NCBI GenBank assembly: GCA_949292215.1
Contig: CASEYW010000093.1
Coordinates: 124,001-188,000 of the forward strand
Reading direction: 5' to 3'
Length of the DNA: 64,000 bases
From: an uncultured bacterium
GTDB lineage: Bacteria > Verrucomicrobiota > Lentisphaeria > Victivallales > UBA1829
In this document: one piece after another, positions 30,869 through 37,595 of the stretch
Numbering within the stretch: position 1 is the first letter of the stretch
How the letters are laid out: each line of letters begins with the position of its first letter
Notes under the pieces: generated by a model
The model's input: only the letters and a program-made list of their open reading frames with translations
What the model was told of the DNA's origin: nothing
Database searches by the model: none
Program-made: the position numbers and the translations under genes

Positions 30869-31351
30869 TTATTTGTTTCCGGTCTTCTGCTGCTCCTGCA
30901 GTTTCTTTGCTTTTTCCTGGATTGCCTTCTGAAGTTCCGGCATATTTTTCATCACGATCTGCTGGCTGAGTGCGGCGACTTTGGTTGAAAGCAGGGCTGA
31001 CTTCGAAGCAAACGCCTGTCCGGAGGGAGTCTTATAGAAGCGAATAAAATCCCGAATCTGCTCCGGAGTGAAAAGTTCAAGATAAATCTTTGCAATTCCT
31101 TCTTTCAGATTGTTGAACTGAAGGCATTTCTGATAGAACGCCTCCAGCTCCGGTTTGAACTGCACCAGCATTGGATTGCCCTGAATTTGAAGAGCAAGCA
31201 TCTGCGCGGAAGTATCGGAAAGCTGTTTTTCCATCTTCATTGCATCGAACAGTTCATAGCAGAGTTTCAAGTTGGCGGGAGTCGCTTCAGCGGCGCTGGC
31301 GGAAAAGCCGCAGAAAACGAGTACGGCAGAAAGCAGCAGAATCTTCTTCAT
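30869..31351 (-). CDS. DUF2059-type secreted protein
   Basis: This 160-residue protein has a signal peptide (MKKILLLSAVLVFCGFSASAAEA) and an all-helical body with LYLELFTPEQIRDFIRFYKTPSGQAF, the signature of DUF2059, found in periplasmic proteins of unknown function. The C-terminus is Lys/Gln-rich. Three ATGs lie close together (31366, 31357, 31351). The last is chosen because AAGGAG is 6 bp ahead of it, whereas the site overlaps or follows the others. Confidence 0.82.
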   Translation of the reverse strand: MKKILLLSAVLVFCGFSASAAEATPANLKLCYELFDAMKMEKQLSDTSAQMLALQIQGNPMLVQFKPELEAFYQKCLQFNNLKEGIAKIYLELFTPEQIRDFIRFYKTPSGQAFASKSALLSTKVAALSQQIVMKNMPELQKAIQEKAKKLQEQQKTGNK

Positions 31352-31497
31352 CTTCATCTCCTTCATGTATCCATGGTTCAGAATGCTGTTCCGGGTTTGG
31401 TGTACAGTAGTTCCGGAAGTTGCTTTTTCAAGTCCCGGATTCGTCAAAATCCGTTTTCCATAAAAGAAAAAATTCCCGGATATTTTTTATATCAATC

Positions 31498-36089: not shown

Positions 36090-36111
36090 TTATTTTTTTT
36101 TATTTTTTTTA

Positions 36112-36139
36112 TTGTATTTTATGGAACATCTGCTATATT
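36112..36139 (+). promoter_or_regulatory. Promoter of small RNA 1
   Basis: TTGTAT (36112-36117) and TATATT (36134-36139) are separated by 16 bp, with an extended -10 TGC upstream. A start near 36146 is expected. Confidence 0.6.
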
Positions 36140-36145
36140 AGATTG

Positions 36146-36245
36146 TCATAAACAGTAACAGGCGATGTTCCGACAGACATTGTCTGTTATGCTCTCTCCT
36201 TTGTTGCAGCCCCGTACCGGCCCCACACGGTACGGGGCACCTTAT
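36146..36245 (+). ncRNA. Sibling small RNA 1 (candidate, new family)
   Basis: A predicted transcript of about 100 nt has three parts. A 5' hairpin (36173-36187) pairs ACAGAC with GTCTGT. A CU-rich linker (CUCUCUCCUUUGUUGCA, 36192-36208) follows. The 3' hairpin has an 11-bp stem, GCCCCGTACCG (36209-36219) with CGGTACGGGGC (36228-36238), and a weak U-tract. The 28 nt at 36192-36219 are identical to those at 36384-36411. No credible reading frame covers the region on either strand. The linker is complementary to Shine-Dalgarno sequences such as AAAGGAGAG. Start and end are predictions. Confidence 0.65.
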
Positions 36246-36276
36246 TTTAAAACGATCTGCTCTGTATACTAAGGAA

Positions 36277-36441
36277 AGCGAAAAAAAAATAAAAAATTTT
36301 TTCCCGGAGGGAACATTCCGGAAAAGCGGGTGTCCAACAAACTGTGGCAAGCGACTCTCCTATGAAAAATATCGTTTGTCACACTCTCTCCTTTGTTGCA
36401 GCCCCGTACCGACCCCCTCTTCGGTACGGGGCGCCTTTTTT
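36277..36441 (+). ncRNA. Sibling small RNA 2 (candidate, new family)
   Basis: This copy has a 12-bp stem of unrelated sequence (36343-36354 with 36372-36383, two G-U pairs). Its 17-nt loop contains a further CTCTCCT. The identical 28-nt CU-rich linker plus stem arm (36384-36411) follows, then the CGGTACGGGGC arm (36422-36432) and a six-T tract (36436-36441), a full intrinsic terminator. The 5' end is uncertain; TATACT at 36265-36270 is a possible -10, giving about 165 nt, but processing may shorten it. Conservation of structure with changed stem sequence supports RNA function. Confidence 0.65.
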
Positions 36442-36575: not shown

Positions 36576-37595
36576 ATGAAAAGTCCATTCAGAAAACTGG
36601 CGATTACGGCGGCTGTCCTTTTTGGAGCCTTCGCAGGAAACGCCGAAACCATCAATGGAGCGGGAGCCAGTTTCCCAGCTCCGGTCTATGCGGCCTGGAC
36701 CTACACTTACAACAAAGCGAATCCGGGCGGGGATCGATTCAACTACCAGTCGATCGGTTCCGGCGCGGGAGTTTCCCAGCTGAAATCGGGAACGATCCAT
36801 TTTGCAGGGTCCGACGATCCCGTCAAGGAAAAAGATCTCAGGGAATTCAATCTGACGCAGTTTCCGATGCTGATCGGCGGAGTGGTTCCGGTGGTCAACC
36901 TTCCCGGTGTGCCGAAGGGACAACTCAAACTGGATGGGCCGACTCTTGCGGCAATCTTTCTCGGAGAGATCAAAAAATGGAATGACCCTGCAATTACGAA
37001 ACTGAATCCGGGCCTCCGCCTTCCCAATCTGAGAGTCACCGTAGTCCGGCGCTCCGACGGTTCGGGCACGACCTGGATTTTCACCAACTACCTGAGCAAA
37101 GTTTCTGAAAAATGGTCCAAAGGCCCGGGCAATGCGAAAGACGTCAAATGGTTCCGCGGCTCCATCGGAGCAAAAGGCAATCCCGGAATCGCCAACAATG
37201 TTGCAAAGACCCGCGGCTCCATCGGATATGTGGAATATGCCTATGCCAAAGAAGCCGGACTTGCAACGGTTCAACTGAAGAATGCGGACGGAAAATTCGT
37301 CAGCCCCGATGTTGCAACCTTTGCAGCCTCCGCCTCCGGAGCCGACTGGAAGAACGCCAGGAATTTCCGGGTGGAACTCACGAATCAGAAAGGTGCCAGC
37401 GCATGGCCGATCACAGGAGTGACATATATTGTTTTGAAAAAAGAACAGAAGGAAAAAGCTGTCGCCCGAAAGATGTTCCAGTATTTTGACTGGTGCTTCC
37501 GGGAAGGTGGAAAAACGGCCTCCGCCATGCACTACGTTCCGATGCCTGCGGAAGTTGTTGCTCTCGTAAAAGCCTCCTGGAAAGAAGTCAAGTGA
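36576..37595 (+). CDS. pstS: Phosphate ABC transporter substrate-binding protein
   Basis: This 339-residue protein has a signal peptide (to about NAE, residue 24) and the PstS phosphate-binding motifs: GAGASFPAPVYAAW, SIGSGAG, FAGSDDP and RRSDGSGTTWIFTNYL. It delivers phosphate to the PstCAB channel in the periplasm. CAGGAG lies before the ATG. It is the first gene of a pstSCAB-phoU operon preceded by Pho-box repeats and the two small RNAs. The Shine-Dalgarno could pair with the small-RNA linker (AGGAGA with UCUCCU). Confidence 0.95.
   Translation: MKSPFRKLAITAAVLFGAFAGNAETINGAGASFPAPVYAAWTYTYNKANPGGDRFNYQSIGSGAGVSQLKSGTIHFAGSDDPVKEKDLREFNLTQFPMLIGGVVPVVNLPGVPKGQLKLDGPTLAAIFLGEIKKWNDPAITKLNPGLRLPNLRVTVVRRSDGSGTTWIFTNYLSKVSEKWSKGPGNAKDVKWFRGSIGAKGNPGIANNVAKTRGSIGYVEYAYAKEAGLATVQLKNADGKFVSPDVATFAASASGADWKNARNFRVELTNQKGASAWPITGVTYIVLKKEQKEKAVARKMFQYFDWCFREGGKTASAMHYVPMPAEVVALVKASWKEVK

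What the first reader, a model, noticed from the sequence alone, without database searches (positions are those of the whole stretch)
36146..36441. Twin sibling small RNAs with an anti-Shine-Dalgarno-like CU-rich linker upstream of the pst operon
Two non-coding units in tandem share 28 identical nt (36192-36219 and 36384-36411) containing CUCUCUCCUUUGUUGCA, and both end in the same 11-bp GC stem. Their loops and 5' hairpins differ in sequence but keep a hairpin-linker-terminator plan. The linker is complementary to AAAGGAGAG-type ribosome binding sites, and copy 2 shows another CUCUCCU in its 5' loop. Duplicated RNAs with C-rich seeds are known as post-transcriptional regulators in other phyla, but I recognise no family matching this one.
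Basis: partly seen in the sequence, partly recalled or inferred. Interest (0 to 1): 0.85.

Follow-up and report, generated by a model that had tools for sequence, protein, structure and literature searches.

The report
Stress-sigma-driven sibling anti-ribosome-site small RNAs
Two neighbouring genes in a gut bacterium of the order Victivallales most likely make small RNAs that are switched on by an envelope-stress sigma factor and stick to ribosome-binding sites to shut down translation; the RNA family is undescribed, its type is known from other phyla, and no transcript has yet been measured.

Summary
Two tandem non-coding units share an exact 28-nt block, each with 5' hairpin, CU-rich linker and intrinsic terminator. 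They are homologous over their whole length, promoters included (94/133 columns). Rfam has no matching family; 198 genomes of the class show no further member.

The same promoter lies before the rpoE-like ECF gene in 22 of 30 relatives, against 1 of 319 ordinary upstream regions. The linker pairs best with Shine-Dalgarno regions, as a general anti-SD; no dedicated targets could be shown. The pst neighbourhood is not conserved.

Best reading: sigma-E-dependent, trans-acting sibling sRNAs that repress translation, analogous to RybB/MicA and above all FoxI/FoxJ, in a genome where no Hfq was found. New family, known kind, new phylum. Transcription, sigma dependence and targets are inferred.

The parts
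36123..36151 (+). ECF sigma-E-type promoter of unit 1: GGAACAT-N15-GTCATAA (a sigma70-like TTGTAT-N16-TATATT overlaps it)
   Evidence: GGAAC-N17-GTC spacing identical in all homologous units
36156..36189 (+). unit 1, 5' hairpin (loop with UUCCGACA)
   Evidence: fold; covariation in genus g1, 5 pairs changed on both sides
36192..36206 (+). unit 1, invariant anti-SD linker CUCUCUCCUUUGUUG (putative seed)
   Evidence: invariant in all aligned units; pairs with SD regions
36209..36248 (+). unit 1, intrinsic terminator (11-bp stem, 8-nt loop, U tract)
   Evidence: compensatory changes across genera
36310..36338 (+). ECF sigma-E-type promoter of unit 2: GGAACAT-N15-GTCCAAC
36343..36383 (+). unit 2, 5' hairpin (loop carries a second CUCUCCU)
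36384..36398 (+). unit 2, invariant anti-SD linker CUCUCUCCUUUGUUG
36401..36441 (+). unit 2, intrinsic terminator (12-bp stem, U tract)
36576..37595 (+). pstS, downstream neighbour (context only; not conserved beyond three genomes of the genus)
   Evidence: TIGR00975 E 6e-113; synteny

Best explanation
The two units are stand-alone genes for trans-acting sibling small RNAs of about 90-100 nt. Each is transcribed from its own promoter by the conserved rpoE-like ECF sigma factor of this family, which a zinc-finger-like membrane anti-sigma probably holds back until envelope stress, and each ends at its own intrinsic terminator. The RNA shows an invariant single-stranded (in g3 and g4, hairpin-loop) CUCUCUCCUUUGUUG, which pairs with Shine-Dalgarno regions (genome consensus AAAGGAG/AGGAGA) of mRNAs and blocks ribosome binding, so that the stress response gains a repressing arm. 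Shown by computation: homology, linker invariance, stem covariation, promoter identity with the rpoE autoregulatory promoter, SD complementarity. Inferred: transcription, sigma dependence, repression, envelope targets, no need for Hfq.
For: Homologous units in g1, g3 and g4 with the linker unchanged and stems varying; 16 linker matches against 1 for the reversed control in 36 genomes; model R1 scores 60-77 bits for members, next best 31 bits. Terminator: 97.5% of cells paired against 31.7-48.6% when slid, 4 pairs with double changes. 5' hairpin in g1: 5 pairs with double changes. Promoter GGAACnT-N15-GTC at 47-52 nt before the linker in all 14 units, 10 with exact GGAAC; same promoter at a near-constant position before the ECF gene in 22 of 30 orthologues, against 1 of 319 upstream regions. 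In a 464-kb sample of this genome the strict motif occurs 4 times and two are these units. The sigma factor is nearest to the RpoE model and is followed by an anti-sigma-like membrane protein. Linker pairing energy is best at -30 to -1 of 319 genes, 0 of 60 shuffled linkers as good. Synteny not conserved, which argues for trans action. Salmonella sigma-E consensus GGAACTTTT/GTCAAA before rybB and micA is the same motif (PMC1804206).
Against: No RNA-seq or Northern evidence. The -35 is degenerate (CGATCTT) in three g3 units, two of them with the same sequence. GGAAC-N17-GTC was located as the best match among all GTCs in 110 nt, so single weak cases could be chance. The rpoE orthologues carry the promoter also in genera without the RNA. 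The linker is a general anti-SD: genomes without the RNA hold as many AACAAAGGAG-ATG sites as genomes with it, so no dedicated targets are shown. The complementary RBS of the G000 sigma gene is not kept in G001 and G002.
Confidence: 0.72

Rival explanations
1. Trans-acting anti-SD small RNAs under the housekeeping sigma factor or a phosphate regulator, linked in function to phosphate uptake; the ECF-like promoter is fortuitous.
For: In g1, unit 1 has an overlapping TTGTAT-N16-TATATT kept in four genomes (sequence); pstS lies downstream in G000, G002 and G003. The linker pairs with the pstS RBS at -12.6 kcal/mol, a middling value.
Against: Unit 2 and the g3/g4 units lack that element and keep the ECF spacing; G001 and all other genera have the RNA elsewhere.
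Confidence: 0.13
2. Cis-acting leader or attenuator of pstS (tandem regulatory hairpins that end in terminators).
For: Position upstream of pstS in three genomes; tandem terminators.
Against: Each unit has its own promoter and terminator; homologues lie away from pst in G001, g3 and g4. The linker needs no alternative pairing with the terminator, as an attenuator would.
Confidence: 0.05
3. RNA decoy or sponge: the linker mimics the 3' end of 16S rRNA and titrates a protein, another small RNA or mRNAs at large rather than repressing chosen targets.
For: The linker matches SD sites in general and no dedicated targets appear.
Against: The linker is longer and more invariant (15 nt, with GUUG) than SD complementarity needs.
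Confidence: 0.08
4. Minus-strand feature: CAACAAAGGAGAGAG is the ribosome-binding site of a small gene on the other strand, or the plus strand encodes a short peptide.
For: On the minus strand the linker reads as a perfect SD; some g3 units have ATG after it; unit 1 has ATG directly before the linker.
Against: Neither ATG is kept across units (for example G025 and unit 2); promoter, U tracts and covarying stems are all on the plus strand.
Confidence: 0.02

Closest known systems
FoxI and FoxJ of Fusobacterium nucleatum (sigma-E-dependent small RNAs, PMC11005410)
   Same: ECF sigma-E control (here inferred), more than one small RNA in the response, C-rich seed in a linear stretch or hairpin loop, no Hfq in the organism
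   Different: No sequence relation tested or claimed; different phylum; here the members are duplicated siblings with one identical 15-nt linker; no targets known here
RybB and MicA of enterobacteria (PMC1804206)
   Same: GGAACTT(TT)/GTCAAA-type promoter in front of a short RNA with an intrinsic terminator
   Different: Those act with Hfq and with distinct 5'-end seeds; here the candidate seed is an internal anti-SD linker, and no Hfq gene was found (genome 90% complete)
alpha-r14/NfeR1 and the cuckoo/CcsR RNAs of Alphaproteobacteria (PMC10746234, PMC10253847)
   Same: Ultraconserved anti-SD motif (CCUCCUCCC) in unpaired regions while stems vary; stress control; CcsR under RpoHI/RpoHII
   Different: Different motif (CUCUCUCCUUUGUUG), one per RNA, different architecture and phylum
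AbcR1/AbcR2 and other tandem sibling RNAs (PMC4211561)
   Same: Tandem, similar in length and sequence, shared seed with diverged remainder
   Different: Not related in sequence as far as Rfam shows; other regulators

Membership tests
sigma-E-dependent small RNA (functional class) | ECF sigma-E-type promoter at the 5' end of the RNA gene | tested here: met
   GGAACnT-N15-GTC in 14 of 14 units at 5 of 7 or better in the -35 box, 10 with exact GGAAC; matches the promoter of the ECF gene itself
sigma-E-dependent small RNA (functional class) | Cognate ECF sigma factor with anti-sigma in the genome | tested here: met
   L122: RpoE-like ECF (best NCBIfam model TIGR02939, below its cut-off) and downstream protein with HxxxCxxC, a membrane segment and weak anti-sigma hits
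sigma-E-dependent small RNA (functional class) | Transcription lost without sigma E | not testable with these tools
   needs an experiment
sigma-E-dependent small RNA (functional class) | Represses envelope-protein mRNAs | tested here: inconclusive
   linker pairs with SD regions in general; no dedicated targets
Any Rfam small-RNA family | Covariance-model score above gathering threshold | tested here: not met
   no match in the window; only chance-level matches for the homologous loci
alpha-r14/cuckoo RNAs | CCUCCUCCC in hairpin loops, usually several per RNA or locus | tested here: not met
   motif absent; linker is CUCUCUCCUUUGUUG
Sibling small RNAs | Two highly similar RNAs from one genome | tested here: met
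   94/133 aligned columns identical including promoters; kept in three genomes
Hfq-dependent small RNAs | hfq in the genome | tested here: not met
   no PF17209 match in G000, which is 90% complete; control genomes ring

The most novel reading that the evidence does not exclude
An independent noncoding repressing arm of the sigma-E envelope-stress response exists in Lentisphaerota, built on one invariant anti-SD module that is reused in duplicated RNAs with freely diverging hairpins and works without Hfq; sigma-E control of anti-SD RNAs would then have arisen or persisted in at least three phyla.
Probability: 0.5. Interest if true: 0.78.

Novelty: new member of a known kind. Interest (0 to 1): 0.62.

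Why it matters
The searches made here found no small-RNA study in Lentisphaerota. If right, the sigma-E response of this phylum has a small-RNA arm like that of Proteobacteria and Fusobacteriota, which makes it testable whether such arms arise repeatedly around the same sigma factor. An exactly conserved 15-nt anti-SD module in an apparently Hfq-less genome also asks how such a general seed attains selectivity.

Tried and rejected
Weak model hits outside g1, g3 and g4 (31 bits and less) were read one by one: ordinary terminators, or the minus strand of ribosome-binding sites. The apparent third copy in G003 (C17) is at a contig end next to pst genes and is probably a strain variant of the same locus. 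A perfect RBS complement before a lipoprotein-like gene in G018 looked like a target, but G018 has no detected RNA and such sites are equally common in genomes without it. The 10-nt complement at the G000 sigma gene suggested feedback, but G001 and G002 do not keep it, and it lies in the promoter spacer. Target ranking in 319 genes gave no clean functional class. A wider sigma regulon in the genus: other strict promoter matches lie mostly inside coding frames and match the reversed-pattern control in number. The 16S 3' end was not found in the assembly with the pattern used. Short-ORF and minus-strand readings were rejected because neither ATG is conserved.

Full report
Observation. The window (G000:C93:124001-188000) holds two non-coding units at 36123-36248 and 36310-36441. 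They share 28 identical nucleotides at the stated coordinates and align over their whole length, promoters included, at 94 of 133 columns. Each folds into a 5' hairpin, a CU-rich linker and a GC-rich intrinsic terminator with a U tract; both are much more stable than shuffles. Downstream lie pstS, pstC, pstA, pstB and phoU; upstream, on the other strand, an M55 peptidase gene.

Homologues. A DNA search found the tandem pair in two more genomes of the genus and a single unit in a third. The linker pattern then found units in genera g3 and g4 of the same family, 16 matches against 1 for the reversed control in 36 genomes; one of the 16 (G018) is the minus strand of a ribosome-binding site and one (G003:C17) sits at a contig end. 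A covariance model of linker plus terminator, run on 198 genomes of the class, gave members at 60-77 bits and nothing else above 31.6 bits; the weaker matches that were read are not members. A scan of 84,980 species for the linker followed by CCCC found Victivallales/Lentisphaeria genomes, plus six matches in other phyla, about the number I expect by chance, 5.6. The named records are mostly uncultured Victivallales or Lentisphaeria from metagenomes.

What is conserved. CUCUCUCCUUUGUUG is identical in every aligned unit (the first pattern search demanded it, but the model search, which did not, found no variant form). The stems vary and keep pairing: the terminator has four pairs with changes on both sides and 97.5% of cells paired, against 31.7-48.6% when partners are slid. 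The 5' hairpin in genus g1 has five such pairs; in g3, with only four sequences, the count is not conclusive. In g3 and g4 ACAAC and GUUGU flank the core, so that UCUCUCCUUU sits in a ten-base hairpin loop; in g1 the linker is open. The loop of the 5' hairpin also carries UCC or CCC in nearly all units.

Promoter. Upstream of each unit is GGAACnT-N15-GTC at a fixed distance (47-52 nt from GTC to the linker): exact GGAAC in 10 of 14, AGAAC in one, and a degenerate CGATCTT in three g3 units, two of which have identical sequence. This is the sigma-E promoter type; in Salmonella the -35 is GGAACTTTT and the -10 GTCAAA, before rybB and micA (PMC1804206). The genome has a strongly conserved RpoE-like ECF factor followed by an anti-sigma-like membrane protein, found in 33 of 36 genomes of the family. 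The same GGAAC-N17-GTC stands before this gene at a nearly constant position in 22 of 30 orthologues, from five genera, while only 1 of 319 ordinary upstream regions in a 464-kb sample has it. In that sample the strict motif occurs four times, twice before these two units. ECF factors commonly drive their own promoter (PMC8103513), so the match links the RNAs to this factor. This link is an inference from sequence; many of the 22 orthologues are from one genus and are not independent.

Action. In 319 predicted genes of this genome the commonest motifs before the start codon are AAAGGA, AAGGAG and AGGAGA. The linker pairs best with positions -30 to -1 (mean -11.0 kcal/mol, about -7 to -8 in most other windows), and none of 60 shuffled linkers does as well. 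The predicted action is therefore blocking of ribosome binding. A set of dedicated targets was not found: AACAAAGGAG before ATG is as frequent in genomes without the RNA, and the best-ranked leaders form no clean class. No Hfq gene was found, although the assembly is 90% complete.

Context. The pst neighbourhood is shared by G000, G002 and G003 only. G001 has its single unit elsewhere, and g3 and g4 have theirs next to unrelated genes. A cis role for pstS is thus unlikely, and a trans-acting RNA is favoured.

Comparison. Nothing in Rfam matches. The nearest in logic are FoxI and FoxJ of Fusobacterium, sigma-E-dependent RNAs with C-rich seeds in an organism without Hfq (PMC11005410), RybB and MicA, and the anti-SD RNAs of Alphaproteobacteria whose motif is kept while stems vary (PMC10746234; PMC10253847). 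Tandem siblings with a shared seed are also known (PMC4211561). The family is new, the kind is known, and the phylum is new for it as far as these searches show.

Limits. No transcript data were available. Everything on expression, sigma dependence and repression is inferred from conserved anatomy.

Noticed in passing
window 36107-36151 and its homologues in L029, L031, L033: In genus g1, unit 1 also has a kept TTGT(A/T)T-N16-TATATT that overlaps the ECF-type promoter, so it may be read by two sigma factors; unit 2 lacks it.
   Followed up: partly
L122 1377-1412: In g1 the ECF sigma gene has its GGAACTT-N15-GTC directly over the apparent start region (GTCGAATG), so its true start or a leaderless transcript needs checking.
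   Followed up: partly
L237 1501-1600 (G011:C113): A GGAACTT-N15-GTC promoter is followed within 80 nt by a strong terminator-like hairpin and no linker: possibly another ECF-driven small RNA in genus g9.
   Followed up: partly
L080 7253-8257 (G020): A SurA/parvulin-like gene lies convergent to the unit in G020; SurA belongs to the sigma-E response in E. coli (own knowledge).
   Followed up: no
L070 (G003:C326 near 31320-31378), L227, L234: Prepilin-like (FTLIELLIVVAII) genes recur among leaders with strong SD complementarity to the linker; the family is large in these genomes, so this may be mere abundance.
   Followed up: partly
L235 1501-1600 (G007:C39): ECF-type promoter followed by a C-rich CUCUCCUCCUUUUUU end; might be a short RNA, not related in sequence.
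   Followed up: no
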